Source: Candidatus Omnitrophota bacterium (lineage in GTDB: Bacteria; Omnitrophota; Gorgyraeia; 2-02-FULL-51-18). From it: a DNA stretch of 35,860 nucleotides. Under the pieces are notes generated by a model. The model searched no databases, had not been told where the DNA came from, and saw nothing but the letters and a program-made list of their open reading frames with translations. Each line of letters opens with the position of its first letter. The stretch's first letter is position 1. The DNA lies in contig JACQQY010000113.1 of the NCBI GenBank assembly GCA_016206825.1, forward strand, positions 1 through 35,860. The letters are read 5' to 3'. The translations under genes and the position numbers were made by a program. Positions 2,429 to 35,860 of this stretch are shown piece after piece.

Positions 2429-2429
2429 G

Positions 2430-2442
2430 TTACCTCATCCAC
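2430..2442 (-). promoter_or_regulatory. Probable ribosome-binding site for the gene starting at 2428
   Basis: Minus strand reads GGTGGATGAGGTAAC-ATG; GAGGT about 4 nt before ATG. Confidence 0.5.
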
Positions 2443-2445
2443 CTC

Positions 2446-2552
2446 TTTCCCCCTCTCCTAACCTCCCCCACGAGGGGGGAGGAACTAACCCAGAAACCCA
2501 ACCATTCCCAACCACTATTCCCCTCCCTTTATGGGAGGGGCGGGGGGAGGGT
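2446..2552 (-). repeat. Same palindromic element, copy 2 (intergenic, inverted relative to copy 1)
   Basis: Hairpins CCTCCCCC..GGGGGGAGG (2462-2482) and CCCCTCCC-TTTAT-GGGAGGGG (2520-2540); TTCCCCCTCTCCTAACCTCC at 2447-2466 is the exact reverse complement of the copy 1 end. Confidence 0.88.
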
Positions 2553-2573
2553 GATCTACCTCACTAACCCCTA

Positions 2574-5500
2574 TTAATAATGTATATCCTCCTCCGCCGC
2601 TTCTTCAAAGAGTTTGTCGATGTCCCCTTGGACAGTCTTATTCTGCATGGCGAAGGTCACTTTGCCCTGGTGGGAGGCGATCTCTTTTTGGATGCCTTCT
2701 TTCATTAAGGAAACCTTATCACCGAGCATGGCGGGCAGGACTTCCGCCAGCATGGTCTGGATAGCCGCGCGTTGAACAACCACGACCCCCTGCTCCACGG
2801 CAAAGCGGATACCTTCTCGATTCCGGTCGTGGGTGATAAACCTCATATTCTGCGGCGCGATGCCCCTTGCCTTGGTCATGTCGGTTAGGAGGTTATTGAC
2901 TTCGTCTTTGCTTTCCATCTTGGCGCTGCTGACATAGAGGACATTCCGTCCAGCGAGGGTATTTACCCTGTCGGCAATGCGGCTCAGATTATTTGCCATG
3001 TCTTGCGACTGAGACATGCCTTGATCAACCACAATGGCTTTTGGGGTGACGATATCCCCTTTATATTCTTCCCGAATGAGTCGAAGTTGTCTATTGAACT
3101 GATGGATGGCGTCTTTCGCGGCTTGCTGAGTAGGAGCGGTCGTTAATCCACTGTCCAAAGCGGCTGTCGCTTGCGCGATGGAGTGATCAACGACGGCTGT
3201 AAGAACGGCTGTTTCAACTAGAGTTTTTATCGTCTCATCAGCAATACTTTGAATCCGCCCCTCCGCCTCCTTCGTGTTGGTGATTTCACCCGTGCTCAGT
3301 GAGAAGTCAAGCACAACAGGCTTGTCCAATTCCACCATTGCCGCTGTGGCAAGGTCTTTCACTTCAAGAATAGAGATGCTTGCCAACTTACCTGTTGTAG
3401 GATCCACCTGAGAAGTAAACGTCATCATCCCATCGGCAGAAGTCACCTGAATAGCCACTCCCTTTTCCGCAAACCGCCCGGCCAAACCGAGGAAGGAGGA
3501 GGCATCAGCCACAACAACGTCTCCCACCATTTGATTGATCATCTTGAGTGCGCCCTCAACGTTCGTTTGATCAAGTCCGACGAGTATATCCGCCGGCAAA
3601 ATAACCCCCTCTTCTTCAACCGGGGCGGCAAAACCCAAAAGAAGTGTAACGGGTGTCTTAATGGAAACGGTTTCTCCCAAGTCAGTGGCGACCGTTCCTC
3701 CAAAAGTGATGGAGGTTAGGGTCCCATCTGTAACCGAAGAAGTCATCTCAAGGCCGTTAGCCATAACCAATGTGACACCGGTTCTTGTGACGCCTCCCAC
3801 TTCTCTAAGAAGATTCATGATCCCCGCCGCATCCCCGGCGCTTTGGATCTTACTGGCGGCGTTTATCAGCCTGTCCATTCCCACCGTCACCTCTTCACTG
3901 GTTCCTTCAATAGTCACAGGGGCCTTGAACGAAAAGGGCTTACCCGAAGCCGTTACGACACCGCCGGACAACGAGAGAGAAAGCTTTCCTTCCGAGAAAT
4001 TGACTGTGAGCTCAACACTATTTTTTAACAGACCCGTGACAGATACCCCCAACTCCGCCGAAACGGTTTGTAAGAGGTTAAGAGCCTGGGCGGTGTTCTC
4101 GGTCTTAGATGTTTCGACGATAGCCTGCTCTGCCTTTAATCCTGCCTCGTGGGATTTGGCGTGGAGATCACCAATCATCTTCGATTTGGTCGTATCTTTA
4201 GCAGATTTGTCGATCCAATCTCGGATGGCTTCTCGGGTATTCTGGACACTCAAATCCTGTTTTAAGTCCCTGTTCATGAGTTCATTAGCCTCGGCCATGA
4301 GGTGTTTCACCTCCACCGCCTCATGCTGGGCAAGGGCCTCTAGGGCCGCCTCCTTAGAAACTCCTTTCTCAGCCACAAGCCTTTGCGTATCGATCTCGCC
4401 AATATAAACTTTATCCTTCGTTCTCGCCGCATGGCTGAACTCTTCGCCTTTCACAACGACAATTTCCCTGCCATTCACAATCCTCCCGGTGGACTCCACG
4501 CGGCCTTCGGCATAAGCCGTTGCGATCTTCTCATTCATCTCAGCGTGAGTATACTTGTCCCCTCTTGAACCGATGCCTGCCAAAGCTTCTCGTTCCACTT
4601 TCTGCCCAACTCCTTCCACAATCCTCGCCCCCGCTTCTTTCTCAGCCCCTTCCCTTAGCACGGCCCCGGACTTCCACACATAATTTTCAAAGCCGCGGGC
4701 CAGTAACATCACAAAGAGATTACGCGTCGTTGAGCGGATGGCGGCAAAGCCTTTTTGTTCGATCACCTTATTGAAGGCAGCCCTTGCATCTTCGGCGTTC
4801 TTACTCCGCCAAACCTCGCCAAGCTTGTCGGTCACTTCCACGCCTTTTTGGGCGGCAAATTGAACGAGGCTTTCTCTTGAGAATCCTCCTGAGGTGATTT
4901 GTCTCAAATCCGTCAGAGACAATTGGCTTAGGGCTTCATCGGCCACAAAACCGGACAAGGCCGCCAAACTAAGCTCGAGATTGGCCAACTCGCCCAAACT
5001 CATCGTCGAGTTGAAGTGACTCAGGATAAGTTCCTGATTCTGAACGGACAATCCCTCCACTCCCAAGGCGTTCATAAGAACCTTCAGGTCCTCGACAGGC
5101 GTGTTGGCGGCGTTCATTCCTTGCAGTATCTGCATAGCTTCCACAATAGGCCTCATCTGACCCAGCTTCGCCATGGCGGTCTCATGACTATCTTGTTCGG
5201 TGGGTGTATTCACCGCCACCAGCGCCGCATTCACCGCCGCCGGCGAGGCGCTCCAGTTCCAATCCAGGCCCGCCATTACTCTTTCGGCCTTAGCTTCCAT
5301 AGCCTGGACACCGTCAATCTTGTTGTTGTGGCCTTCGAGAGCTTCTCTCACGAAATATTCCAAGCTCCCCTCCACGGCTTTCTCCGAACCTTCAAATTCC
5401 TTCGAACCTGTCTTCAAAATTTGCCTCATATCAGCCAGTTCTTTATTCGTCGCCCTTAGATCGGTGATGTCCAAGAAATGATGAACGTCTGCCTCCGCTC

Positions 5501-8500
5501 TTCGCTGTTGTTTTTCCACAACCACACCGACACGCTTGGCCTGCTGGATCATGGCGGAGGAGGTGTTGACATCTCCGGTAGTGTACAGCACTTTTTTGAA
5601 ATCGCTCCGCATCTTATCTGCCGTTTGAATAAAGCCGTGCTTACCCACCCCAAAGATGTTGGAACCTGTAACCAGTTCCGCAATCACATGCACTTTGCCG
5701 CCGAACTCGGTTTGTTTCTTACCTTTAACCGCTTCGCCAAACTTCCCCGCATAGACGTTCGGGTTGTCGTAAACGACAACTTCCAACACCTTGCCGCTGG
5801 TATTTCCCGCCCTATAGATCGTTACGCCCTTCCCTTTAGAAACTGAAATCTTCCCACCGGTTCCTGCAAACTCCTTGGCGGCCGCATCGGCTTTCTCATG
5901 AGCCATGTCCCGGGTCGTAGCCGCAACCACGACCAGCTCATCAGACTTCCTATCCTTCGTTGCCTGCCGGATAACGTGTTGAGACAAAAACTTCAACATA
6001 GATGCGTGGCCGTCGAAGACGTGCCATTTGCCGGTGTCGTGGAATTTGCTCGTGCCCAGATCGTAAACCGCGGCGTTCATCATCCGGAGCGTCTGCTTAG
6101 CGCCCTCGATGGTTCCGCTCAATGCAACAAAGATGTCCCTGCCTGTCACGGAACCTTTGCTTAAAACGGTAAGAGCATCAAAGATGCCCACTCCCTTGGC
6201 GCTTGAAGTGCTGAATGAATTGTAAGCTCTCTTTATATTTGCGCCGGCACGAAAAGCAGCGGCAATAGCCTTGAAAGGATCTCCCAGGTGAGTCTTCTCC
6301 ATGGTTTGCCCGGCAAGGTCCTTCAAATCCACTCTCCCGCCCTTGCCGGTTGAGATTCCGCCTGCTTGTCCAACCTTGGTCGTAAGAATATCAACGGCTC
6401 GACTGACATAAGTTTTTAACAAGGTCTCTGCCATTTCCCGTCCGCCCAATTGGGTGATGAGCGCCGCGTTCTCTGGGGACAGTATCTTTTGAATCAAATT
6501 CTCAGCGGCGGGCTTATCCATCTGCATTTCCCGATTGGCGTCATATCCAAAAAGCTCTCTGTTTGTCCTGAACAATTCTCTTATTTGTCCCGATGTTTTC
6601 TCCAAAAGCCTGGTAAACGCATTGGCTGTTGGCTTATCGGTTTTATCCAGCTTCGTGTAGGCATCTTGCAGCGCCCCCATTGTCAGACGAGTGGTTTGGA
6701 AAACGGCTTCCGCTTCATCCACGGTAACCAGGGAGAACCCTTCGAGAAGCTTCTCGTTTGTGTGTTTGATTTCTAAAAGCGTTCTTGCGTCCAAGACAAA
6801 AACCCCGCCTTTATCCCCCTTGGCGGACATCTGGCCGGCATTTTCAATCACATGAATCCCGCTCCCATTCTCCATTAAAAATTTCTCAAGGGCGGCGTAG
6901 GTTTTATTGTTGGTATTTGAATCCTTGTTAACGTTCTGAGGGGTATCCATCAAAATCATCAGTTTCGTGGATCCGATGTCTCTGCCTTTCGCTTTCGCAT
7001 AGAGCAAGAACGCCAATTGCAAGGTCCAAATGGGAATAGTCTTTCCACCGCCTGCAGGGACAGCGATCATTAACATTCCACCAGGACCGGAGGCCAAACC
7101 GGCGTTTGAGAGAGCATAAAGCAAGCCGGAAGCCAGGGCCTTACGCTGATCGCCGCCAAGAGGATTTTCACCCTCTTGCCTGCCTCGCTCTATCGCTTGT
7201 CTCATGGCGGAAACGACTTCGCCCAACGGTCCTTGAAGCGCTTTCCCTGTCTCCACGGCCTCCGCAATCTCATTCACCTGATTTTCAACTTCCCTTTCCA
7301 TTTGACGATACTTCTCCGCCTGCCGGCTTACTTTTTCCGGCGTGATGGACTGGGCCAATTCACTGGTGCCTGTTCTGGCAAGTGTTCTCTCGGTAAAGCT
7401 GAAATCCTTCATCGTATTTTCCATAACGGCCGCCCTTCCATCGCGAGAAAGCTTGCTCAAAACATCTCCTGACTTTGCATCCACTCTTGTCTCATAGACC
7501 CTTATGTACAACTTCCCCAATTCAATCTTATAGAGCAGTGTTTCCCTGCCTAACTCTGTTTTCTCAACCTCGGTAAGGTTGGTCTTGCCCAATTCCTTCG
7601 CCTTTGCCTCACCCGCTTGAAGGGCAATTTGATTCATCCTGGCTCCGTCTCCCTGAGTTATATCGCTCAATCGCGCTTGTGCCTCTTGATGAATTCCTTG
7701 AGCGGCCTGCTTGACTAATGGAGATTCTCTCAACCTTTGTTCTCTAAGCGCCCTCCGCTCGGCGATTCCCTGCTGCAGTTTCCCGGCAGGAGACCACGCC
7801 TGCGGCATCATGAAAAGACCGATCCAGCCCAAGGCACCGATTTCAGACTGGGACAGCCCTGCGCCTTCCTCTTTCAAACCCTTCGGCGGGGCGGCATAGG
7901 TCAACAAAGCATGCAGACCCGTCACAAATCCTGCCATTTGAACGTTGCCCACATACCACCATCCACTCGTTAATTGCTTCACCAGGCTCTGCTGGGCTTC
8001 TCTCCCAGCCGTAGGCGATCCTAATATTCTCACCATCGGTCCCATCCAGAGACCTTGCATCGGACCTTGGATCATACCGGTCACCAAAGTATTTAAAGTA
8101 ATCTTCTGTCCGCCCGCCTCAAATCTTCCGGCAACGAGCCATGTCCAGCCTCCTTCCGCCAGAGTAAACAAGGGCGATACCACAATCCACTCCACACCCC
8201 CCCTGGCGCTTGCCATAAAGAGTGGATTGTTAATGGCAAAGCGCTGTATAGAGGTCATAGGAGCAAGCCCCGCCCGCACTCTCATGACATTCAATCTCTC
8301 AAAAGAAATCCCGCCCCCTCTCAAAACACGGTCGAGCTTTCCTGCCTGATTAAAGCTCCAAACCCGATGACCAATGGTTTGAGCATGACTGATGCCGATC
8401 GCAGAACCCCCGTATCCGGCAACCAACCCCCAAACAAAACCCTGCCCAAAGCTTCTCCCAATGTCCACCCAGTTACGAACGTTTCCACGGAGGAAGTAAT

Positions 8501-32500: not shown

Positions 32501-35500
32501 TGGGCAACGTGAATACTCCGCCACCTGTTAAGGAAACGGTTCCTTTCCCCGAAAGGTTGACCGTAGCAGCTCCCTTCAAAACAGCCCGCTCCCCGGTAAG
32601 TAAATTCAAAGTTCCGCCGGCCGCTACGCCGATAAACTTATCGCGCGGAGGTTGAATGATCGTGTTGCTTGAAAAGCTTAACGAGCCATCGTTGATGAGA
32701 GTGATGGTGCCGCGACCGGGCAATGCCACCCTCCCGCCGGACTTAAGGGTGATCTGTGCGCCCTTCGGCGCGTTCACGGTCCCGCCCGCCGCGACGGTAA
32801 TCGTCTGGCCATTCGCGGAAATAACCGTACCGCCATCCGGCAAAGTGAGGTTCCCTCCCTCGGCCAGTGAAATGGCGGCATCCCCTGCGACATTCACCGT
32901 GCCTCCGTTGGGCAAAGTCGTGGCCGTACCTGAAGGCATGGGAAGCTGTGCCCCTTCCGGCATCTCGAGGGTGCTTCCGCTGGGTACCGCAAAGTAAGTG
33001 TATCGTTGAGAAAGCCCCCATACTTTCTCCTGAATCCACTCATAAACCTCTTTGAGCCTCATTTCTTTGTCAAAAATCTGCTCACGGAGTTTGAAATTGC
33101 CTGCTTTCCCAACGGCCTTCGCGTTGATAAGGGCATTCGTATTGGGATCCCTCGTATACTCGTAGTCATAGACCACGCGGGCGGGATAGTAGTAAGTTTG
33201 ACTGCCTACCTTGTAATCTTGGATTTCATCCTGCTCTATTTTGAGAAGAGTCCCATTCAAGTCATAGTGGGAGACTGAGCTGAGAACGTCCGTTTGCTGA
33301 CTGATGGGGATCCCGTAGATTCCTTTGGGTACGTAATGCTGGTATTGGGTCACTCCGGAACTGCCGACCGTCATCGCCGTCTCTCCATATTTGTCGAGGA
33401 TGGTCACTGAATCAAACGTGGAGGGATCTCCCCGCCTCGCGCTGCGCATAATCAGCGTTCTGAATTTCAACCGGGAATCAGGATAGCCGGGATCGACGAT
33501 CTCTTCATAGTTGTAGTACACCCAAAGGCCGTTTGGCTGGATCAGGAAAGAAACGCGGGACTCACCAAACTCGTTTTCTTCATAATAGCTCTTCGTGACC
33601 TTTAATTTATCCGCCTTTTTCGGAACAAACTTATCCGCATTTGAAATAAATGAGGATACGAAATCCTCAACCTTGGTTGTAGGTGGATCCGTTCGAAGCG
33701 GCTGGGTACTTGTTTCCTCCATTTCGTCAAACTGCATGGTGTAGAAAAGATCGCCCGATTCGTCATACCGATAGTAAGTAACGGAACTTCTTCCGCTTGT
33801 CACGTAGTCGACGCGTGCTTCTTGATAAAGATCCTTCTCATACACGGTCACCGTTTCGTTCGACTCAGGCACAAAAGTCGCGCCGTCATACTTCGCCACC
33901 GTGCTGGTGTAGCGCGTTCGCACAAGCGTGTCGGACGGATCGTATGCGTAAGTGGTAAGAGTGCCCCGGTAGTCGGTGGTATAGGTGGTTTGCGTTTCGT
34001 AGAATGGGTTCAGACCGAAGTAAGTGGTGAACCCATTGCCCTCCACCTCGATGCGGGTGAGAGAATCATCGATGTTTTCTTGAGAAGAATCCTCCTGCAT
34101 GACGCCGTTGGCATCCACTTTCCAGAATGACGAGTCATAGCGATACCTCTGCTCCACGCCCTTCCGGTCGGTGACGGTTTCGATTTTTTCTTCCCCGAAC
34201 TCGCCCGTGAAAACGGTGTCGCTGATTTTCCTGGCATTCGTGAGATTGATTCCCGTGGAGGTGACCATGGCGCCAAAGGTGGTCTCCTGCCTGCGCAAGG
34301 CATCCACGTCGCTCGCCTGAGAGGCCCGCTTGTCGCCCTCATAGAAGGAAACGGCCGCGTTTCGGAGCGCGCCGTTCGCTTTGTAGCTTGCCGTGTAGTC
34401 CATCTTTTCCGCGCCTTCCACGCCGGCATAATAAGTCGCGGATTTCACGCTGAGACCCGTAACGTCCCCCGATCCCTCCGCGCCCAATCGATAGGCCGTG
34501 GCGGCATGCAAAGCGCCGGTCGCGTCATATTCATAAAGGGCCGTCTCAAACACCACGCCGCTCCGCAGATACGTCTGGGTATAAGAAATTTTCTCTTCAC
34601 CGGCTTCTTCTCCCCGATAATAGGCAAATTGTCTCTTGGCTCCATCGATCCTCGTCTCCGTTCGAATGAGCCAATCGTCCGGCTGGGCGGAAGCGGCGCG
34701 CGCGTTCCCTTTGTAGAAATAAAGCTGTTCCGAAAGCACGACTTCCGAACCCGCCCGGCCGCGGTAATTGAGCGTCCGGTCGCGCCTTTCTTCTCTCGCG
34801 CCGCCCTTATAGAAAGTTTCGGACAAAAGCTTATTGGTGGTGAAACGGCTCGTCGGGGTGACGCTTGCGACGTCGGCCACCGCCCCCTTGAAGGTTCTAT
34901 CCTGAACGAGCGCATCTTCCGTAGAAGCGTCCTTGGCGCGGACCGCCGTATTATTCGGCCCTTGATAGAAATTAACGCCGACCGTCCGAATGCGCGCGCC
35001 GTCATTGGCGTAGCTATAGGCATAATCAGCCACCTCGTCTCCCTTGCCGAGGTGGGTGTCGAAGAAAGTGCTCGACCGGCGGTTGGCCGCTGCAAGGGAG
35101 CCAATACTGGATGTGCGATGACTATCCGAACGAACAAGAGCCTCCTCACCCTCGGCGCCGCCTGCGCGGATAACCGTGTTGTTGGGGCCTTGGTAGTAAT
35201 TGACGCTGACGGTCCGAACGGTAGCGCCGTCGCTGGAATAGGCATAGGTATAATCCGCGACTTCCTCCCCTTTGCCAAGATGAACGGCAAAGAAGGTGGA
35301 AGACCGCCGGTTCGCCGTTGCCACAAGGTTAATCGCCTTAGCGCGGTGGGTGTCGGAGCGAAGCAGAGCGTCTTCAGCGGACGCCTCACCTGCGCGCACA
35401 ACTGCACCGGCAGCCGGCCCTTCATAATAGCTGACACCTACGGTCCTAACCGCCACCCCATCCTTGGCGTAGTTGTAGGTGTAGTCGGCTATCTCGTCTC

Positions 35501-35860
35501 CGCGTCCCAGATGAGCGTCGAAGAAAGTGCTGGAGCGGCGGTTGGTGAAATTTGTGGAATCCACCTCATCAATCGAGGCGGCCTTGTGAGTGTCGGAACG
35601 AACGAGAGCTTCATCGGCAAAAACGTCCTTGGCCCTTATGGGGTTCTGTGCGCCCTGATAGTAGTTCACGGTAACGTTCTTCACACGGGACCCATCGCTC
35701 TCGTAGTTATACATATAATCGGCCGTCTCATCGCCTTTGTCTCCCACGAAGAAAGTGGAAGAGCGGCGGTTGGAAGTGACTGCCTCGCCGAGGCTCTTGG
35801 CTTTGTGAGTGTCGGTTCGGACCAAGGGGTCATCGGCTGTGGCTTTGTCCGCCCTTACCC
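2574..35860 (-). CDS. Giant multidomain, probably surface/secreted protein; partial, 5' end outside window (at least 11,083 codons in window)
   Basis: Single open frame with stop TAA at 2574-2576. Frame stays open through 35860: upstream codons read ..VRADKATADDP-LVRTDTHKAKS.., matching the downstream repeat junction IRAKDVFADEA-LVRSDTHKAAS. Coherent domain and repeat content throughout. Confidence 0.97.
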   Translation of the reverse strand, partial: VRADKATADDPLVRTDTHKAKSLGEAVTSNRRSSTFFVGDKGDETADYMYNYESDGSRVKNVTVNYYQGAQNPIRAKDVFADEALVRSDTHKAASIDEVDSTNFTNRRSSTFFDAHLGRGDEIADYTYNYAKDGVAVRTVGVSYYEGPAAGAVVRAGEASAEDALLRSDTHRAKAINLVATANRRSSTFFAVHLGKGEEVADYTYAYSSDGATVRTVSVNYYQGPNNTVIRAGGAEGEEALVRSDSHRTSSIGSLAAANRRSSTFFDTHLGKGDEVADYAYSYANDGARIRTVGVNFYQGPNNTAVRAKDASTEDALVQDRTFKGAVADVASVTPTSRFTTNKLLSETFYKGGAREERRDRTLNYRGRAGSEVVLSEQLYFYKGNARAASAQPDDWLIRTETRIDGAKRQFAYYRGEEAGEEKISYTQTYLRSGVVFETALYEYDATGALHAATAYRLGAEGSGDVTGLSVKSATYYAGVEGAEKMDYTASYKANGALRNAAVSFYEGDKRASQASDVDALRRQETTFGAMVTSTGINLTNARKISDTVFTGEFGEEKIETVTDRKGVEQRYRYDSSFWKVDANGVMQEDSSQENIDDSLTRIEVEGNGFTTYFGLNPFYETQTTYTTDYRGTLTTYAYDPSDTLVRTRYTSTVAKYDGATFVPESNETVTVYEKDLYQEARVDYVTSGRSSVTYYRYDESGDLFYTMQFDEMEETSTQPLRTDPPTTKVEDFVSSFISNADKFVPKKADKLKVTKSYYEENEFGESRVSFLIQPNGLWVYYNYEEIVDPGYPDSRLKFRTLIMRSARRGDPSTFDSVTILDKYGETAMTVGSSGVTQYQHYVPKGIYGIPISQQTDVLSSVSHYDLNGTLLKIEQDEIQDYKVGSQTYYYPARVVYDYEYTRDPNTNALINAKAVGKAGNFKLREQIFDKEMRLKEVYEWIQEKVWGLSQRYTYFAVPSGSTLEMPEGAQLPMPSGTATTLPNGGTVNVAGDAAISLAEGGNLTLPDGGTVISANGQTITVAAGGTVNAPKGAQITLKSGGRVALPGRGTITLINDGSLSFSSNTIIQPPRDKFIGVAAGGTLNLLTGERAVLKGAATVNLSGKGTVSLTGGGVFTLPNGGTVVVKGETLNIGVGGTVQLSDNEEATLLAGGAVVLPGDGTVALADGGTLTFPNGAVLALAEEAASTLTSALLGIELDPNSAGSVRLGSNSVKIDSSTLIYDGVGAVITASRLKEIYDANPADTYLKVTAAQLQDGSWKADRIDVVAAPVREVKGAVDNLYNPSGLSVLTGILQGVGADTVRFADHDIKIVDTTIVKDAKGNVISGTAAEKTARLEAIRQAFEDQGIFATVKLVALKSASGWEAQQVLLTAEEPDIAATRLTGALQNLDAVGRSILFAGQIMKLQDGTVIKDVNGVTMSQSAFSALWEGNKAGGVGTFVALEVRRISGEWVLQQINLISDAQGQAAFTGNLEGVTITQAPAVGTLKINGKDIQVKDTSILGDTGGNPLSLAQLSGIFSYHRLMGITTGVDASVVLSSSGDLVLSRLKVLTRIDTVLRRAAAVSVKTIDETDSTKGTITLADGMQFQVDSSTVMRNAAGDPLSLQDLPADALVSVQLVKVGDAWKAEELKMTPAFPLGDEFSGPPSSIDSTLGVVGIGGQSVKVDGQTLVEDSSGSLLQGGLSDLAALSNKGQLLLSVRVKKDEAGEWVAEKIRVTSILNKADTFTSSAVKAQDIQFVDDADDSYVKKITQMTVNGMNVVVGNDTETDGFFTEVEIRYKDHRYGVIREGVRSEFQTPPNTFEYRSVGGLKGLLSGDFQSIVPADVPVTVKVTAMKVGNTWRAARILAETQHEITDRATSSISGAVQRVLVQDGTVTLNGETLLVTSSKTIKDAAGKYYTLEELANLFDSNNQAGKATNLAGSFVKAYALQTGKVSHNQSSVITKDIRVNSDKATVAFNWKVSSEQGKDLFKFEILKDGVVIDDTSVISGEADWQRVTRDLGEGAYTLRWVYTKDGGDTGLVGQDAGWIDELLLLEDKTSKKIDFGYLADTVLNVSGGYVTDSWAVQDGVSYDPAGAGMQAGNTDAGSSSYFEKVVELAESGALTFQWKVDGNSTDKLRLYVDGSEVPTQVPLISGNTDWTNAKMVLSAGAHTLKWVYDRTQTPQGSPPSSNAWVDEIKIEKAASYGKALSFDGTNDYVDLGSPASLQITGSQTIALWVNPSDFASSSNLFSKAYGGEGTIYLNTDGSVSYSYGTGGGNNYPYQSFKMSASLARNAWTHLAVVRDLENKKLRWYQNGQFVNETDALYASAVSSTLPALIGRGDAGYFRGKLDELAVYNRPLTAGEIQSLMDTRPSSSEVGLAAYYSFDDGSAVDLVSGVKGTVQGGLVPLDEKTFFYDGFASVDYTTGTMIPAPYTSGGDAVWANQNTTAFDQGGVAAQAGTISAGQNSYLQRTVYVGQTSTLSFNWMVNSDPGDELLLYVDDLDTPVASVSGNSGGWTGKSHALSAGAHTLRWVYKRSSVSAGPANNNAWVDEVKIQKDQPYGDGLSLGATNAMVTVPPINMSGDRTLMAWVKFPLPSTGGYRTLFSSKAAGYSHLVISSDNYLGVFNGFSFYNSWYNIGSLSSGWHQVAAAISGGVTTIYVDGNAVGTAFTQVTRDLEVIGNGGLGSQNIGTIDEAALFDRTLSSTDIQAYKNQQLQGDETGLLAYYSFDDGTARDLSTDAVKYDGTLSAGAVAVSQRTVVRDSSFAVVSALNPSWQNQNTSAYDAGGFALQAGDTLAGTSSYLERKVNLEGDGFLEFQWKIDALATDKLRLYVDGNLAQDAISPLSGSSGWVKGMLKLSKGAHTLRWVFDRTKTVFGEPSSQAWVDEIQVKSQPQGTALKFDGTDDFAKVTNPANLPLGGSSRTFAAWFRLDKAGSYSSGQNWLFGYGPSALSNFWGVYVDNYYNQIVSSFGGYYSVSAGLPSSDLNRWYHLAVTLEGSNVKIYLDGAQINSYPISFGVNTQLGDLFIGQKGDNTGYFNGAIDETAIYNRALTADEVKALMTTKLQGSENGLVTYYSFDDGSAKDLTTTGNDGVLQGGTTAIQDKAIPIVSVTPSQVRFLTGGDGAWKTQNSLAYGQGGFAAQAGATRGGQSSFFQTTTELDDAGMLEFSWRIDSQATDALKLYIDEKEAASIAGASNGWLRSTLNLPKGKYTLRWVYDRTQTTDTAAANGNAWLDEVLIKKVAIYSDAMRFASTADTMTIPPINMNGDRTIMAWVKFPLPALESSYSYNALFRSSSGPSDSHFVVRSDGTLAILDSMNGYTYYPYNAVDSGYSVRSLSSGWHHVAAVGSGGKTQFYMDGNPVGNLLNRQVTKDLAAIGGEGQLSYGRAMGTIDEAAVFGQALTTSQIQSVMNTKLQGNEEGLLAYYSFDDGTGKDLSGNGKDGTLQGSPAPAKEIYWSESFSPKPTAVPFTPRIDGGNWEVVDDGTGNMAYRQSTLGGDHLSFLDGKTIVNGTIQTKFKFKRNLYEYLQLYFRLNSRNDGYAVRVGTSSESGIYLLLYEVKSGNLGNQLGFTSLSGFDPSAWHTLKVDANGDNIRVYLDGNTAQFLNVTNAAYSVGEIALGTSNLGAPAFFDDVEVIPADAAYHLEKPAAGLPDGFVSTDAFVQNEVRSVLWRADAMSLGAEGVLIPEGRSWTGVKPEEIAFSWDAQDPSAGAVTVNGVTAVVNSSTAIFDANLTLVSAQQLRTLMNRSSGLYFDVHFEMVSGQAVAKTIKVAADISGKTQMKDELQSATLVNGELRSIRINGVDFTVTSSAVIRDSLGAAIGGARLEQIRSENQARSIPTLVNVTGMMLRDGTYEAQTIDVLTESLHTRSESHNLDAVDVVGGKVKVGGVEYPLANGFKMTDPAGSLLTAEQVSNTLFLDSELSLETNARVKLIETDTGWKALELQLRSRHDNREVQLSTAQPQLIRGVAGLDTVADALTLGGVSVTRSSSLVIKDSLGVILTWEEMKRLFAKNAANGIPTYAKAALSRTRPWEVEKIELTTTFFERFNGKLQSLDAAGQSLQVKGEAVDLSRAIVKTGGETILTLQELYDWLHNNPDYLVNTLETGKDADGRMSLETITVKGVTYQVTADTQITGLDGSAVSQEGFARFFEDSALLGNEIYAKVTAENGVATRITLTEKKPLVLVDITAEKVEGRWVASQVVVSARVIPETKPIDFFGSAAPFVTVGGVKVLLGETTRLMKETDPLDPKSLTLGDLAQEIVDDPSLHFIARIPEGKDIALSGSLVFGGEQTLDAATREAIISGVEKWLTERIGLPFGQPAPAPNWVREYLYYFQVDPEQGKRLLKGEATPQTEGEGSFVYYITLFINNPDEYSQYFGADYVTQYQTWLSGGALTESMVQGILTWLKNQSKHFGASAFGALSLLINGANGLIPNLVSTAVQAITKDIQSGVISETTTGDLTISLQAMKEAAEAETQKSFFGYRVDFDELKRFVQAGNPVIAHIGPDHYVVVKEISDDDVVTLLEEGQLKTSTRSYFTGIWDGNILAASKPVTGAELTVDQAKAVLGSGGRWFHAFISSGEAEKYGFTTDPATGKRVRWTGRDPSTVKQEEITMMAETVNEVGEWTRRTFYGRNPKVLGDTTGRLLYAIENLEGGGGGGGKGSFENFDKKIEYLEDGSIRVTVYTKESRELLAKYAVGVDLESSADATAVIEYDPSGKIASFWEARYGFILDNGLLRQIRGTELSDFINALNLKLDKKYPVWQGGIQSALREMNAALNDYFYVKKLAVDGKWALLNNFKDGFKNELRKFNEASGKNLADSWTQFKELSKSYVTAMASQLQKGELFKTANAALENFKNKSGAMLDAFKGRWNDTFVFQAFGSITDSSGTSSAGAGYLQPKIDEMVARAAGIGYNLTGTDFLTNLGGSYRRHWKAARHAYSDSYNGNWDDLWLNILDAVDDTESDSLKNLQRAQTKLEKEMEGRDEALRGLFIGPEDLVVEGIGKIEGFEGPIKQSREEGPRSSPYLTNRYYMDSFFGGAGFENDPWWQRAQGGYSEDDVFVPGAVTRSWWDEEVDRQLERARSAKENLQEVLGAGFVDLLPEDVSTAVKASLDRSIKELDKFLGPKGFLEALRESVRATVAYTLLSLRSVKEKITEQMSEIRRKWSEAVGTIKERFQQFKAAESTFEDAALVDWAKATVSSESADGTLTVKYKLNFDVEPVKKYVEAIAQGLPDVSEVFQTIAEAYKGIVDASSGELSKSYEIQKDTREGLEELGEEMSKTVYEVAKNAAEVKERLEAEKKVGDGSLGSAGLLTEEGTGSKTDFKEMPDWLGRDLDRAFLSFSIDEVLKTLDPDNMPFVNKLGPPDYLGRVDKESYQSHILDYLFDEPSSWTGDDQHRPGGGIYHGALNPSFGGDIGDLGTKTLGLVFSPGAITGATYPSYDSGLPQALSGIVEQYVAGNQYVMNRLIDTVDYYPTVPAYGGYPGGIADWQAPIFPLWVTSTFYEYMTSAQEDFVNTYAPYYTGQPRQGSTEDLGDGKILSLSWKAYSDVGGGTGIKWGETADASLRGEFGASLNGYKGSDFPGVVYLNSSSGTPYWSSWNSTQAYKSYIGGLLGTAKPFIGSYTDQDPNAKLPQYPNSAYWLDFYSKNKGFNVVVYNSEDEKEKALFDLLSSDPLGLGTSNRILHRTATDPSATYAKVSAQDQVTIEELRAKGEIGDRYAQLNLKLFRRLEEFYDPVLGALPETIAQILNGLVEAEEKRFERRKQELDQLKDKMLSETEEAKGKALQDLNGQEAEIVRGLLAQQLVPMLRTFFRSYEAVMKQYQWGWELASVVTELIDLQGVKKFNTVLITVLEKGLEQLENLWKAANAVDTTGLVPALKTIVNRAKEVLNEAYGQGTGSARASLARLAEQRKAVEDNSKRQKEEIEKTHEALLKRLEQAKDNAIVEKHIVAERAALFLSGGQEEIEQKTSLVDPKDPMKGGVLETTTTFKDRQGNVIRKLTTKRFDATVRAAAAPKRQPKPLQKGIFYDLIRPVAQTADEGARLTKILSGSDPSVAGPIQIGDSSISPKDLIGPDTYSDTMKKIVEEIEKLMVGSLENQDAKKRGAAEQTYQETFDITMEDLESKSQSIGKQWKWLQDNYSLVTSKSFRASKSFIEGLMGTKDLGRALFLAKAVQFSDIAKRIIAETEGLKAVEGLKGEIVEFSVHVVSDKEVKEALRQGREAPEAGTAILGFRSKEGFALLELTQDKEGRTTSRRRTLVEKKEDRYRLTSQVLDAELKSRGGETIEVKLRAGRQIRVAFEFMGKLVVGLRHFPTTDKEGRDVFDVELVGGRVDQGGRVVTDKTGAVQGEQILGRAFRTAKGSEALFLLGEGGGFSLRINGQLSLRGSLESVLDREKLSGLLGSFATANQLQPVAISLQPGIQSLLLVSGQAFFRNDRTGEIENAKGTPLIAPEFHEEKVKGNAQGIAVLRGVVAAVTKEGEKSGLDAATLNVLRSLSGLSSTLRAYNAQGQILSNLTAFTNLKGEVERFTTGAYKGQIVLVDVERQRVLSEGGKALFEIQEVRRAFERAGVKGTVSEAQLRIFQKGVTPEQEASYKLLAQRLFAAPIGFGVVTNQAGGQIGFLVKAGNVKAGEEIFIQQEGGLIQAFDAQNNRLLAIKDQGVEAIKNEAVKNLGVDLARNYLVEFAADLDESTKLAVAGLVGSFTGLSALAILSGKFQQGLNRFGEQVGFTFSIDNRLAKQTGLAEGQEIFVKAGEQGVELYRLQGGLGGAPPAALGSGLFSGGRERFTLAGGELGTAQGLRFQFKGVTAEAAAFFKGFIVNLMGVELPVPPSLLADTIQIIQNEEGVKMGVAMGVTKELLNVLPQEGRILREGQQILVTKQGVFGAAANAQQALVVSLDEAGGEEKFVREGFVSQAMRVNYGTTTDPAQQAFLRSLASVIFNVPVSATEFTVVMETATGRIMGSFETSKLQALVQALTNESQQVDKALAGIGQLNGRLTAAGIEDKVKMGEAELLGLLIRAEGGEARQALYQKISEITTNEKNEFEASLRGIQDLNADLVKAGIKDQVQMDATGLFILLLGAKDAGVRGTVYTNIRWITTTEKNQIVDSSSHIQTLNSQLANAGIKDQVKFGATELFTALLGMKNGDARQELYGRISQIAFGEVLFKEQNFVTAFEDIQTLNVLIAKAGIKDTIKIGATEFFIFLLGAKDGDARRDIYTRLTEITTTESSQFASSLRDIQATHGQIKIGATELLTILLGMKNAGERKEIYSKIGEIKTESMRFGHSLERIESLNNALKAAGRTDQVELGGTELFIKLLGAKDASARLEIYGKIDQITLGEDKSFIGALSKIGAVNARLGQKVQIGATELFSILLGAKDSSARGAIYLGMGEAASSGSFENLFKALGTSNQGMPLDKQVMVDATQLFLAFVSRKDANGPVVVEGTFGPETRAVFAFDPQGRLTDVEVAKDFPDANAAQTAILDMAKTLGIAVDHIAVSGTIAETRGTFRFDAEGRILSAAVPFGLRSLPSELAKLGSTMNEVLAALHAQLKDGKTPDGVPPSIQKAILSMTDTEIKSADPWQALAKRIDESKDTDVARLRTDIGKAEMGNFIKTLILQNIALKPGGLDRESEGLNCVGTHALAARIAGSFGLQWDVVYVDGLQEPHVALIDRGTKEFIELSVRGDLKQSLFERYSQALGEGRTLDGVTVKFLMVDASGTAKLEGAGSFTKLWGREGQWVGGKFDVRGFSAEAVLIVEQQKRTGGTVNYLYDQAVSALEAKDLGRAKEYLKEAAAFASGMKGELGRAEKKAGTDAVYLADLGILNHNVENVTKLFELVVPLKDLSGLTVNRTTGGGIEIVIGKTASDFTLGGVVSAVPVNVKVDRDLDGLQKAIDDFAKSADPSAQGVGLSQLVSLVSTGGMTEFLKRDKAGNFVKDANGYLLLDHTKMDSFSARINGMLAVPGNAKAVMDFRAELNGAFQLLGLGKEVDAMTFARLVGGMDRLFGEGERLDIGALNSLKNSVPVFADVLRASKVSKPGDVLLAMLSVPSFTASFETVEGTILQFVMKDRQLESISVMAQKAVGSGGQPLDFFVPIRDKDGKSVQLLGKDGKVDEAKLTQMAAIGKIAGGATDDNYKEAAQKVSAMGFGVQFETKSFVINVMAGKEAEIAGIKAVNQTLGADKPIRVLFKTKADALAPISEENARTLIGFLQGRVGSESEALQSLTDVLTDGYKLRVIPGTTMLYSYEAHRGGGEVSIGGLEVEEGKFLKLSGVGSVEFTLGNKDSFTTYMITQGEAQDLKGHRANYSGGPLRGVWWAEFMGIGQGADLEVSKGKVGSYTPAGVTNMVVGQRVGETIRQASVDIMFEKDNTNPAISIASDVRDVLGKDLTAEQMKQAMKGMWSPKGEFTHGVLDSYKSERIQKISWGFGNGVLSVDANLVVIFSMPALLKDGQKIGLSADVSRLDLDKVPVAQGLQNLVLQASGIESLKSTLREYAGTVDTTLRLAYESKGVSISSVIDGHNVSDTIFGKDGKARNVSSSLFDDKGTFLAKQVTDLTGKQPLTKIFGFDGKELGDQKLTAVLFGRTAALAKGEDGLLQLRLEMGDKPMIFTAGGKQFTVSGVLALTLTQGGFFNVQGSKLDLERGVTLTTNEVELGKDSLFLKSGALHNRGYVLLEMGDRVQGWKEMGAPGGEKKGLVEDFSIQVVKDKDGKQFFGEGSISIREGRFAALANQTFDVGEQVQTLRVGNSEVTGSGQFVYTDVQSIQRVGPEVLDIRRGEMGLLAVSKAHEIYGQKVESDYKGDKSTQMKTLFDQFTYELESGRFNAVEATMRELSLQHQAERIVASIDLPSAGDYLMQDSFNRFVVEDLSNRSSLWDLKGEDLVNKLVAMEKTAPGALKGLTRSFEVQSGREAYLAQSLYDKWWFHAAGGESLFTDSGLWLQTKAVIGITGIVVSVALTGGTATLLWAELWGGISLGTNVGMSWYQGKEINWAQAIGGAINNGFWGASLQGGFAVANGILNGFKLVTATGKTILSFEKGLLGTKGVGSVFANPLTGYATMGFLGAFGNIGWQVGSNLLQGKGLFEKVGWDTFLKGFGFGLALKWGSGLATGVPRLKVGAQYVGGAAVVGVGNVAIDYFLRGNVRNWVDIGRSFGQGFVWGLVAGYGGSAIGISHAQTIGHRVWSFNQAGKLDRVLRGGGISFERLNVMRVRAGLAPMTSIQRFAINNPLFMASARGGVEWIVVSPLFTLAEGGWTWLVAGRFEAGGQKITLNTLVTGMIQGPMQGLWMGPMVRILGSPTAGREAQQSLVKQLTSGWWYVGNVQMAGFVTGLHALLTYAAPPKGLKEEGAGLSQSEIGALGWIGLFMMPQAWSPAGKLQQGIAERRALREQRLRESPLVKQAAQGIHQEAQARLSDITQGDGARMNQIALQAGEAKAKELGKTNLTEVEKTELGRETLLYKIELGKLYIRVYETRVDAKSGDVLSKLSRDGRAAVMENTMKDFSFTERTLARTGTSELAQSITPEKVSRQAEKYRQMEREVENQVNEIAEAVETGKALQGPLGEVVSAMRQAIERGRQEGENPLGGDQRKALASGLLYALSNAGLASGPGGMLMIAVPAGGGKTIPIWTLQLAFLLYAKAKGRDIGSTKLMILMDTPQNVNKDSNTNNKTYAALEKFLMENGSGIHVIENAGQMSAKGDKGGVFVLDARTLLEIKHTNEKLLEGFSLVTVDEAEAVFQTTRLTMGALQDAYTKLDKTDKPTANAFTRLLEKTSGQIRELFRTNRELFGYDANREMQMDKPAAENLIQKILSPENAALITQLGGREMAETLLKTYVSRAVDILTTKVGQAGGISTGKGGRVDLKDLAGQTMEKTHLGDPFKAIAAAFRAGANIKRAYNSFSTSSAKGVGIFDALTVLSKGSVTGRDIFVALSGTIEGAKQTLRMMNAAVYDLGTSKFHDTGKWHVFDGHASMLKFLSQHVIRQATKDRKSDELVVVAATTRDMAHEKADAAAKEFAGTGGKISVSKGKGVTIYRAGNTSGKVLEVVVYDNPNVYAGKFGEAVKGKKQTEFGGKVHVIAELVTGSNIFGVGKHGFIQTADKMRSDFKKVLYTTGDVNTSSAMIQQAKRVGVVVEKQQRRAEADVHHFLDITDLRATNKELADMRQILKTGSKEFEGSEKAVEGSLEYFVREALEGHNNKIDGVQAMEAKAERVMAGLDWNWSASPAAVNAALVAVNTPTEQDSHETAMAKLGQMRPIVEAMQILQGMNAANTPVEDLKVLMNALGVEGLSVQNQELILSHFNSTMSLGELANLELSLAALSGFVADEALSQLSLTDLRQITSGGFSRESLVQFAAQKGVEVTDKLGEVWRSKNAEDARAAFNKVIEQKGFAAIRSTTRNLFVMLLARGFENYVWKSGAVLREGAEKEAGARIVEGVGQKVEREALAGIGSRGDKYTHAEMNEKIATAYAEGRVESTGRIVNGREIVVVKGEEFSHAARTKDKVYIGEIDTQRLVAEKGVSKEAALEALAQHEAVEVKHLMAEANELMNRDLKQDLSVQNTREAIRDWIDKSAKDTTKSKMIGDLHAKSHEAGLKAEQAIVETSKTENTAQALNLLQTVSAELGVSVTGLLKNSVELTVNFSEGKLSLSLSGGVVTASGKPFSFKAPVTIEGTSEEVTVGMDRLINAASKIQSAGDAAGIMNLLREVGGVTRTGVTLVMANGLEMTSSVTDGTLTSITFGGTVATDLGETVSIKTPVTLLLGFAAPVEEEGVILPADILVGLDQTNVEGALKMINQMVGDVVVADASSFLGLAGRFAEKGVAIQVTSADGMMTFTSQVDPTTGKLASISILEVKDLATAAMVELDKPVVLDFSLSTGEITNTKEAEGRIQSIADETIKTLVETAVLTAVVDHSIAQATAALDSGLTTAPTQQAAKDAIHQFNRQLRLIREEYKGDIVTPKAIVVDQGMSQSQDMANNLSRIADRVNTLAGRNVLYVSSAKMESKDEVNNLLTDMTKARGIAPQNMRFITHDRNREGIRFAVEQGVVVVQRAAIQTMLAEVLPAMLGDKVSLMKEGIQKEIASHQGKVTFAMQNKTVQGDIDKLFEEAAEEDIHY
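2577..3100 (-). other. C-terminal alpha/beta domain of unknown function
   Basis: TPKAIVVDQGMSQSQDMANNLSRIADRVNTLAGRNVLYVSSAKMESKDEVNNLLTDMTKARGIAPQNMRFITHDRNREGIRFAVEQGVVVVQRAAIQTMLAEVLPAML: alternating beta-strand and helix pattern. Confidence 0.5.
3290..4110 (-). repeat. Three divergent ~85-aa repeats
   Basis: LLQTVSAELGVSVTGLLKNSVELTVNFSEGKLSLSLSGG..FSFKAPVTIEG / LLREVGGVTRTGVTLVMANGLEMTSSVTDGTLTSITFGG..VSIKTPVTLLLG / LAGRFAEKGVAIQVTSADGMMTFTSQVDPTTGKLASISI..VELDKPVVLDFSL. Confidence 0.75.
4302..4325 (-). other. HExxExxH motif (ALAQHEAVEVKHLMAEA)
   Basis: Codons CAT GAG GCG GTG GAG GTG AAA CAC read in frame. Confidence 0.5.
5440..7260 (-). other. SecA/DEAD-type helicase-like ATPase domain
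   Basis: GDQRKALASGLLYAL..MLMIAVPAGGGKTIPIWTLQLAFLLYAKAKG (Walker A 7038-7055); FSLVTVDEAEAVF (Walker B DEAE 6708-6719); FVALSGTIEG (motif III-like, about 6102-6132); C-terminal part ..SAMIQQAKRVGVVVEKQQRRAEADVHHFLDITDLR (about 5450-5560), compared with the SecA-type QLRGRAGRQG..SRFFLSLED region. Confidence 0.8.
7800..9140 (-). other. Gly-rich hydrophobic, putative membrane-associated region
   Basis: AVIGITGIVVSVALTGGTATLLWAELWGGISLGTNVGM..AIGGAINNGFWGASLQGGFAVANGILNGF..VGGAAVVGVGNVAIDYFL..FGQGFVWGLVAGYGGSAIGI..IGALGWIGLFMMPQAW. Confidence 0.75.
12700..13060 (-). other. Transglutaminase-like core
   Basis: GLNCVGTHALAARIAGSFGLQWDVVYVDGLQEPHVALIDRGTKEFIELS. Candidate Cys codon at 12996-12998, candidate His codon at 12906-12908, followed by Asp. 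Confidence 0.5.
13595..14975 (-). repeat. Eight tandem repeats of about 50-64 aa (..fe.sl..Iq.LN..l.kAGikdqVkiGATELF..LLGaKd..aR.eiY.kI.eItt.e)
   Basis: E.g. QVDKALAGIGQLNGRLTAAGIEDKVKMGEAELLGLLIRAEGGEARQALYQKISEITTNEK; NFVTAFEDIQTLNVLIAKAGIKDTIKIGATEFFIFLLGAKDGDARRDIYTRLTEITTTES; SLERIESLNNALKAAGRTDQVELGGTELFIKLLGAKDASARLEIYGKIDQITLGED. Confidence 0.93.
15000..16200 (-). repeat. About four tandem ~120-aa modules with 'xxxGExIFVxxxG' core
   Basis: Cores VKAGEEIFIQQEGG (about 16000), LAEGQEIFVKAGEQG (about 15650), LREGQQILVTKQG (about 15280), each preceded by a hydrophobic segment such as LAQRLFAAPIGFGVVT or FFKGFIVNLMGVELPVPP. The fourth copy is partial (FLRSLASVIFNVPVSATEFTVVME). Confidence 0.45.
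17900..18740 (-). other. Helical / coiled-coil region
   Basis: Charged heptad-like segments, e.g. EEKRFERRKQELDQLKDKMLSETEEAKGKALQDLNGQEAEIV and RLAEQRKAVEDNSKRQKEEIEKTHEALLKRLEQAKDNAIVEKHIVAE. Confidence 0.7.
22260..22720 (-). other. Peptidase C39-like (papain-fold) domain, apparently lacking the catalytic Cys
   Basis: HFGASAFGALSLLINGANGL...FFGYRVDFDELKRFVQAGNPVIAHIGPDHYVVVKEISDDDVVTLLEEGQLKTSTRSYFTGIWDGNILA. The His block (PVIAHIGPDHYVVV) is clear; the expected CG.xxL is replaced by SAFGAL. Confidence 0.6.
23200..24870 (-). other. Second block of DUF5666-like modules (about 6)
   Basis: AGAVTVNGVTAVVNSSTAIFDANLTLVSAQQL; RSIRINGVDFTVTSSAVIRDSLGAAIGGARL; DALTLGGVSVTRSSSLVIKDSLGVILTWEEM; GKLQSLDAAGQSLQVKGEAVDLSRAIVKTGGETILTLQEL. 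Same pattern as block 1. Confidence 0.55.
24985..25500 (-). other. Jelly-roll domain, DUF1080 / LamG-like
   Basis: NGTIQTKFKFKRNLYEYLQLYFRLNSRNDGYAVRVGTSSESGIYLLLYEV..SAWHTLKVDANGDNIRVYLDGNTAQFLNV..GEIALGTSNLGAPAFFDDVEVIP. Confidence 0.7.
25555..26185 (-). other. LamG / concanavalin A-like domain 4
   Basis: AMRFASTADTMTIPPINMNGDRTIMAWVKFPLP..GWHHVAAVGSGGKTQFYMDGNPVG..MGTIDEAAVFGQALTTSQIQSVM..LLAYYSFDDGTGKDLSGNGKDGTLQG. Confidence 0.92.
26610..27235 (-). other. LamG / concanavalin A-like domain 3
   Basis: ALKFDGTDDFAKVTNPANLPLGGSSRTFAAWFRLD..RWYHLAVTLEGSNVKIYLDG..FNGAIDETAIYNRALTADEVKALM..LVTYYSFDDGSAKDLT. Confidence 0.93.
27650..28238 (-). other. LamG / concanavalin A-like domain 2
   Basis: VTVPPINMSGDRTLMAWVKFPLP..GWHQVAAAISGGVTTIYVDGNAVG..IGTIDEAALFDRTLSSTDIQAYK..LLAYYSFDDGTARDLS. 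Confidence 0.92.
28690..29310 (-). other. LamG / concanavalin A-like lectin domain 1
   Basis: ALSFDGTNDYVDLGSP..ITGSQTIALWVNPSDF..WTHLAVVRD..RWYQNGQFV..GKLDELAVYNRPLTAGEIQSLM..LAAYYSFDDGSAVDLVSG. Confidence 0.93.
30040..32300 (-). other. Series of about 8 DUF5666-like beta-barrel modules
   Basis: Repeated pattern G.LQ.v.....i...G..i.v...T.i.d..G..ls...l.......g....v.l....g.W.A..i.l, e.g. GILQGVGADTVRFADHDIKIVDTTIVKDAKGNVI..LKSASGWEAQQVLL and GALQNLDAVGRSILFAGQIMKLQDGTVIKDVNGVTM..ISGEWVLQQINL. Confidence 0.6.
32308..32990 (-). repeat. Octapeptide repeat array (about 28 units, consensus [LV][PA]xGGTVx), predicted beta-solenoid
   Basis: Near-exact 8-aa register: VPSGSTLE MPEGAQLP MPSGTATT LPNGGTVN VAGDAAIS LAEGGNLT LPDGGTVI SANGQTIT VAAGGTVN APKGAQIT LKSGGRVA LPGRGTIT ... 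LPGDGTVA LADGGTLT FPNGAVLA. Confidence 0.9.
33000..34905 (-). other. Divergent YD/RHS-like repeat region
   Basis: Recurrent motifs such as YYAGVEGAEKMDYTASYKANGALRNAAVSFYEG, YEYDATGALHAATAYR, YRYDESGDLFYTMQF, VSHYDLNGTLLKIEQ. Confidence 0.7.
34905..35860 (-). repeat. Four tandem 73-80-aa YD-like repeats (..VRSDTHKA..NRRSSTFF..KGDEvADYtYnYa.DGa.vrtV.VnYYqGp..), continuing beyond the window
   Basis: Protein-level tandem copies start at 35825, 35606 and about every 228-240 bp after that; partial upstream copy at the window edge. Confidence 0.93.

What the first reader, a model, noticed from the sequence alone, without database searches (positions are those of the whole stretch)
2574..35860. Fragment of a giant gene: at least 33 kb in one open frame, with its N-terminus outside the window
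The frame is open for more than 11,083 codons with consistent domain and repeat content, which is exceptional for prokaryotes. The annotated start (35825) is TTG, not ATG, and falls inside a tandem repeat. The 33 nt upstream translate to VRADKATADDP, a match to the repeat junction, so the true protein is longer. Giant genes with mosaic beta-rich architecture have been described in Omnitrophota, and this looks of that kind. The lineage is inference.
Basis: partly seen in the sequence, partly recalled or inferred. Interest (0 to 1): 0.9.

Follow-up and report, generated by a model that had tools for sequence, protein, structure and literature searches.

The report
Truncated giant surface protein of Omnitrophota
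The window holds the last 11,094 amino acids of a single enormous protein, probably used by a tiny uncultured Omnitrophota bacterium to grip other cells or polysaccharides; it belongs to a known class of giant genes, but this one carries a built-in SecA-like motor and only one cysteine, which sits in a likely enzyme site.

Summary
One minus-strand frame is open for 11,094 codons and runs off the contig end. The TTG at 35825 is not a start: it lies inside an array of about 76-aa repeats. The genome is Omnitrophota: all five named PolA hits are. A syntenic ortholog in a same-family genome spans at least 66 kb (about 22,000 aa), with more LamG copies and an extra subtilase, and is also cut by a contig end, so the true gene is probably longer. 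Architecture: beta repeats, solenoid-like and DUF5666-like repeats, four LamG units, a degenerate C39 domain, helical repeats, a Cys-His domain, a hydrophobic stretch, a divergent SecA-like ATPase, an alpha/beta tail. The protein has one Cys where about 126 are expected, and it is invariant in six homologs. The SecA relation rests on profile-profile comparison with giant proteins that do match SecA_DEAD (E=3.7e-14; controls 0.25-0.93); Pfam alone misses it. Most likely role: cell-surface adhesin/processing protein; the motor's role is inferred. The kind is already described in Omnitrophota, so this is a new member with notable details, not a new category. C44, my candidate for the missing N-terminus, was tested and rejected.

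The parts
2574..35858 (-). giant ORF, 11,094 codons, 5' end outside the contig
34839..35858 (-). about 76-aa YD/RHS-like beta repeats, residues 1-340 (4 full units and a partial one); contig breaks here
   Evidence: self-BLAST; DNA identity; RHS_repeat only E 0.21
32988..34838 (-). degenerate YD-like beta repeats, residues 341-957
   Evidence: homologous to G010 (34.5% id)
32259..32987 (-). beta-solenoid-like repeats (LPNGGTV...), residues 958-1200
   Evidence: fold inferred from sequence only
30078..32258 (-). DUF5666-like ~90-aa repeats, first block, residues 1201-1927
   Evidence: PF18914 above cut-off; self-BLAST
25539..30077 (-). four units of ~350 aa, each a jelly-roll-like domain plus Laminin_G_3, residues 1928-3440
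   Evidence: PF13385 E 1.8e-78, 4 stretches
24984..25538 (-). 3keto-disac_hyd/LamG-like domain, residues 3441-3625
   Evidence: PF06439 27.8 bits, cut-off 26.8
23469..24791 (-). DUF5666-like repeats, second block, residues 3690-4130
   Evidence: PF18914 E 7.8e-7, 3 stretches
22179..22961 (-). degenerate peptidase C39-like domain without the catalytic Cys, residues 4300-4560
   Evidence: PF03412 24.2 bits, profile 45-130 only; no Cys there
13506..15134 (-). about 60-aa helical repeats, residues 6909-7451
   Evidence: self-BLAST; helical nature inferred from sequence
12639..13241 (-). Cys-His (transglutaminase-like) domain, residues 7540-7740; only Cys of the protein (C7621, codon 12996-12998) and H7651 (codon 12906-12908)
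   Evidence: C and H invariant in 7 sequences; fold not confirmed
7719..9161 (-). Gly-rich hydrophobic stretch before the ATPase, residues 8900-9380
   Evidence: aligned with hydrophobic stretches of G010 and G051
5388..7223 (-). divergent SecA-like P-loop ATPase, residues 9546-10157
   Evidence: hhalign to SecA_DEAD-positive giant domains E 3.7e-14
2577..3356 (-). C-terminal alpha/beta domain and tail ending in D-x-D ... hydrophobic-x-aromatic-stop
   Evidence: shared with 4 other large ORFs
2..2428 (-). downstream gene P0001, signal-peptide start, cut by contig end at 809 aa; probable N-terminus of a second very large gene
   Evidence: 42% id to G010 ORF of 1,736 aa that continues over a 10-N gap into a 6,520-aa ORF; N-terminal signature A6

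Best explanation
This is the C-terminal part of one giant surface protein of an Omnitrophota bacterium, N-terminally truncated by the contig end. Shown: one open frame, lineage, a larger syntenic ortholog, LamG arrays, near-total loss of cysteine, a conserved Cys-His domain, and a SecA-like ATPase near the C-terminus. Inferred: the chain is exported through Sec by an N-terminal signal that lies off the contig; its beta-repeat/LamG half extends outward as a long, multivalent, disulfide-free adhesin that binds polysaccharide of a partner or prey cell; the Cys-His domain modifies or cleaves the bound target or the protein itself; the hydrophobic stretch anchors the chain; and the SecA-like ATPase stays on the cytoplasmic side, where it helps drive or hold the export of its own chain. 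The first part (giant exported adhesin of the Omnitrophota kind) I rate about 0.75; the motor role alone about 0.3.
For: Open frame with native codon usage. All five named PolA hits are Omnitrophota. Ortholog in a same-family genome, at least 66 kb, same downstream gene, LamG and DUF5666 arrays plus subtilase. LamG in our protein at E 1.8e-78; laminin_G_3 giant ORFs already reported for Omnitrophota (PMC10066038). One Cys observed, about 126 expected from 33 ORFs of the same genome, typical of exported proteins that avoid disulfides (own knowledge). SecA-like ATPase: profile-profile E 3.7e-14 over 477 columns in motif order, controls 0.25-0.93. Pooled over seven relatives, SecA-like domains hold 3.9 Cys per 1000 against 0.6 elsewhere in the same proteins (p 4e-8), as expected if only that part faces the cytoplasm. 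Peptides of a giant ORF rose 3-fold in attached cells of V. archaeovorus (PMC10066038).
Against: The N-terminus and its signal peptide are not on the contig. Hydrophobic segments in our protein are few (3 with mean hydropathy of at least 1.6, only one close to the ATPase), so membrane anchoring is uncertain. In our protein and in G010 the SecA-like part also has no Cys, which weakens the topology argument for this gene. Relatives come from MAGs, several of them fragmented. No expression data.
Confidence: 0.6

Rival explanations
1. Polyprotein: the chain is made once and then cut into several working proteins (adhesin, enzyme, ATPase) by its own or other proteases.
For: Domains of unlike character in one chain; a conserved Cys-His domain here and a subtilase in the ortholog could process it; cleavage of Omnitrophota giants has been suggested (PMC13104272 citing West-Roberts 2023).
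Against: No cleavage motif recognised; the order of domains is kept in the ortholog; no proteomic data.
Confidence: 0.2
2. Delivered effector: as in large polymorphic toxins, beta repeats and the hydrophobic stretch carry the C-terminal part into a neighbouring cell, where the SecA-like and Cys-His domains act.
For: YD-like repeats and a hydrophobic Gly-rich stretch upstream of a C-terminal enzyme-like part; SecA-like part is Cys-free in this family; predatory lifestyles proposed for the phylum (PMC10066038).
Against: RHS_repeat below cut-off; no immunity gene recognised; the C-terminal part is conserved rather than variable among relatives.
Confidence: 0.1
3. Assembly chimera or decayed gene that happens to be open.
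For: MAG contig that ends inside repeats; the G051 relative has one in-frame stop.
Against: Uniform codon bias, no N, diverged repeats that do not collapse easily, and a collinear ortholog with the same neighbour.
Confidence: 0.03

Closest known systems
Giant ORFs (>20 kb) of Omnitrophota, Seymour et al. 2023 (PMC10066038)
   Same: Same phylum, length over 20 kb, laminin_G_3 domains, proposed adhesion/predation role.
   Different: Here the gene is incomplete, nearly Cys-free, and a Cys-His domain and SecA-like ATPase are mapped.
Giant genes of predatory bacteria, West-Roberts et al. 2023 bioRxiv 2023.11.21.568195 (cited in PMC13104272; not held, content recalled)
   Same: Giant Omnitrophota genes, up to about 85,800 aa (PMC12057145); I recall that most were said to carry divergent secA DEAD helicase domains.
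   Different: The SecA-like subfamily here is so diverged that Pfam misses it; it was found in 7 of 384 class genomes.
45,379-aa ORF of G038 (single 1.55 Mb contig)
   Same: Same class, single giant ORF, two SecA_DEAD matches, signal-like N-terminus.
   Different: Normal Cys content (431, 0.95%); its SecA part is close enough for Pfam.
Canonical SecA
   Same: P-loop, DE box, SGT motif and motif V/VI region in the same order.
   Different: Below Pfam cut-off and fused in a giant protein; the genome has its own 888-aa SecA ORF on C113.

Membership tests
Omnitrophota giant ORFs (Seymour 2023) | host lineage Omnitrophota | tested here: met
   PolA hits, all five Omnitrophota
Omnitrophota giant ORFs (Seymour 2023) | ORF longer than 20 kb | tested here: met
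   33.3 kb open
Omnitrophota giant ORFs (Seymour 2023) | adhesion domains such as laminin_G_3 | tested here: met
   PF13385 E 1.8e-78
Omnitrophota giant ORFs (Seymour 2023) | multiple transmembrane helices | tested here: inconclusive
   3 hydrophobic segments in ours, 12 in G010, by hydropathy only
Giant genes with divergent SecA DEAD domain (West-Roberts 2023) | SecA-type DEAD domain in a giant ORF | tested here: met
   profile-profile E 3.7e-14 with controls; the definition itself is from recall
SecA (PF07517) | Pfam SecA_DEAD above cut-off | tested here: not met
   no hit; own canonical SecA is elsewhere
RHS/YD-repeat proteins | RHS_repeat (PF05593) above cut-off | tested here: not met
   E 0.21, 12.5 bits against 22
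Peptidase C39 | catalytic Cys | tested here: not met
   Pfam 24.2 bits but no Cys in the domain
Transglutaminase-like cysteine enzymes | Cys-His catalytic pair | tested here: met
   C7621 and H7651 invariant in 7 sequences; activity not shown
Transglutaminase-like cysteine enzymes | fold | tested here: inconclusive
   single-sequence model pLDDT 47 and no meaningful match; no Pfam or PDB sequence match
Two-partner secretion / autotransporter | N-terminal secretion domain | not testable with these tools
   N-terminus lies off the contig

The most novel reading that the evidence does not exclude
A self-exporting giant protein: a SecA-like motor fused to the C-terminus of an almost cysteine-free extracellular adhesin powers or ratchets the secretion of its own chain, which would explain how such proteins leave a tiny cell.
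Probability: 0.15. Interest if true: 0.9.

Novelty: new member of a known kind. Interest (0 to 1): 0.5.

Why it matters
How cells make and export proteins of tens of thousands of residues is open. This locus gives a diverged SecA-like motor inside such a protein, a conserved Cys-His domain that can be assayed alone, and an ortholog pair that shows growth by LamG repeat expansion and enzyme gain. Each makes one part of the question testable.

Tried and rejected
C44 (own contig, N-terminal signature, YD-like repeats, runs off contig end) was my candidate for the missing N-terminus; rejected because relatives hold it as a separate gene of about 1,390 aa. No contig of the genome repeats the N-terminal 400 aa or overlaps the contig end. 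The first genome-contig scan with P0001 found nothing. Viral-contig scans gave no relatives. Direct sequence search of the SecA-like and Cys-His domains against PDB gave nothing meaningful. Single-sequence AlphaFold models were poor (pLDDT 47 and 39), so the Foldseek result is not used. The idea that the C-terminal tail is a phylum-wide sorting signal is weak: it was found in only 5 large ORFs. No Rfam RNA or tRNA in the window.

Full report
What is there. The window is a complete contig, C93, of a 1.29 Mb MAG in 120 contigs, 84% complete. On the minus strand one frame is open from 35858 to the stop at 2574: 11,094 codons, running off the contig. The TTG at 35825 is simply the first start-like codon in the frame. 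The residues before it, VRADKATADDP, match the junctions of the following repeats, so the protein continues upstream. The other frames of that strand have about 480-500 stops each, position-specific GC is even along the ORF, and codon usage matches other genes of the genome (r=0.96).

Lineage. rpoB is missing from the MAG. PolA from contig C4 found five named relatives, all Candidatus Omnitrophota, at 44-46% identity.

Ortholog and real size. A genome of the same family, G010, has the same gene at the end of a 1.59 Mb contig: 1527917-1594126, at least 66 kb, about 22,000 residues in pieces that change frame only at scaffold N-gaps. It aligns with parts of our protein in order from residue 31 to 10,109, with a related C-terminal tail and the same downstream gene. 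No similarity was found between about 5,960 and 8,970. It has more Laminin_G_3 copies, more 3keto-disac_hyd and DUF5666 copies, and a subtilase (PF00082, 8.4e-43) that ours lacks at that place. So these genes seem to grow by repeat expansion and to gain enzymes. It too is cut inside its N-terminal repeats.

Anatomy. Self-comparison and Pfam give: beta repeats (1-957), solenoid-like repeats (958-1200), DUF5666-like repeats (1201-1927), four jelly-roll + LamG units (1928-3440), a 3keto-disac_hyd-like domain (to 3625), more DUF5666-like repeats (3690-4130), a C39-like domain with no catalytic Cys (4300-4560), a long helical part with about 60-aa repeats (6909-7451), a Cys-His domain (7540-7740), a Gly-rich hydrophobic stretch (8900-9380), an ATPase (9546-10157) and an alpha/beta tail (10835-11094).

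One cysteine. The protein has one Cys in 11,094 residues; 33 ORFs of the same genome predict 126. That Cys, C7621, lies in a domain found in six other class genomes, inside ORFs of 2,058 to 11,919 aa (three weaker hits in short ORFs were left out, one being an epimerase-like protein). In the alignment the Cys and a His 30 residues on are two of only six invariant positions. The pattern resembles transglutaminase-like enzymes, but no database match or good model confirms the fold. Retention of the one Cys at an invariant site in an otherwise Cys-free protein argues that it is used.

SecA-like ATPase. Residues 9546-10157 carry GGGKT, VDEAE, SGT.EG, TGSN and Q..R motifs. Profile search found the domain in 7 of 384 class genomes, then 15 of 384 in the phylum, mostly in large ORFs including 21,903 and 35,009 aa. 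Pfam does not recognise it, apart from a sub-threshold DEAD match in one member. In 12 of 59 class genomes PF07517 SecA_DEAD scores above cut-off inside large ORFs (1,874 to 45,379 aa). Comparing the two sets as profiles gives E 3.7e-14 over 477 columns with the motifs in order; reversed and unrelated profiles give 0.25-0.93. An earlier, smaller comparison gave 3.1e-4, and the direct comparison with canonical SecA alone only 0.0024. I take the domain as a diverged SecA-type ATPase. Whether it hydrolyses ATP is not known.

How it may work. LamG arrays and loss of Cys point to an exported, disulfide-free, multivalent binder. The Cys-His domain may process the target or the chain. The SecA-like part needs ATP and so is most simply placed in the cytoplasm behind the hydrophobic stretch. 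The pooled Cys bias (3.9 versus 0.6 per 1000, p 4e-8) fits this, but our own protein and G010 have no Cys in that part either, so for them topology stays open. Polyprotein processing and delivery into prey are live rivals.

Neighbour. P0001 (2-2428) is not a small gene: its G010 ortholog (42% id) continues across a gap into a 6,520-aa ORF. It begins with the signal-peptide signature shared by giant genes of the class. The same signature led to C44, which I tested as the missing N-terminus and rejected.

Known or new. Giant ORFs with laminin_G_3 in Omnitrophota are published (PMC10066038), as are lengths up to about 85,800 aa (PMC12057145). The preprint that, as I recall, treats their SecA-like domains is cited in PMC13104272 but not held. 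The finding is therefore a new member of a known kind, with an unusually diverged SecA-like module and an extreme Cys bias as its notable features.

Noticed in passing
L094 (own contig C37) 2-6742, minus strand: A P0001 paralog, 2,247 aa and cut by the contig end, carries an intein splicing domain (PF14890, E 3.2e-22).
   Followed up: partly
window 2-2428 (around residues 585-625 of P0001) and 2480-2560: Repeat-like sequence read in frame as PLPLWEGRGAGEAEGE inside P0001, and CCTCCCC/GGGAGG hairpins in the intergenic gap: perhaps a mobile palindromic element.
   Followed up: no
L069-L076 (G038:C1:1156625-1292761, plus strand): A single 45,379-aa ORF on a one-contig 1.55 Mb genome, with two SecA_DEAD matches and a signal-like N-terminus; Cys content is normal.
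   Followed up: partly
L014/L015 (G051:C15:21515-21517): One in-frame stop separates 3,003 and 7,080 codons of a related giant gene: error, decay or readthrough.
   Followed up: no
L012/L028 (G010:C1:1503213-1527706): Second very large gene downstream of the G010 ortholog, with a YAHELGHHLF zinc-protease-like motif.
   Followed up: partly
L095 (own contig C44) 3798-6671, plus strand: Omnitrophota protein family of about 1,390 aa with the giant-type N-terminal signature and YD-like repeats; relatives in most same-family genomes.
   Followed up: partly
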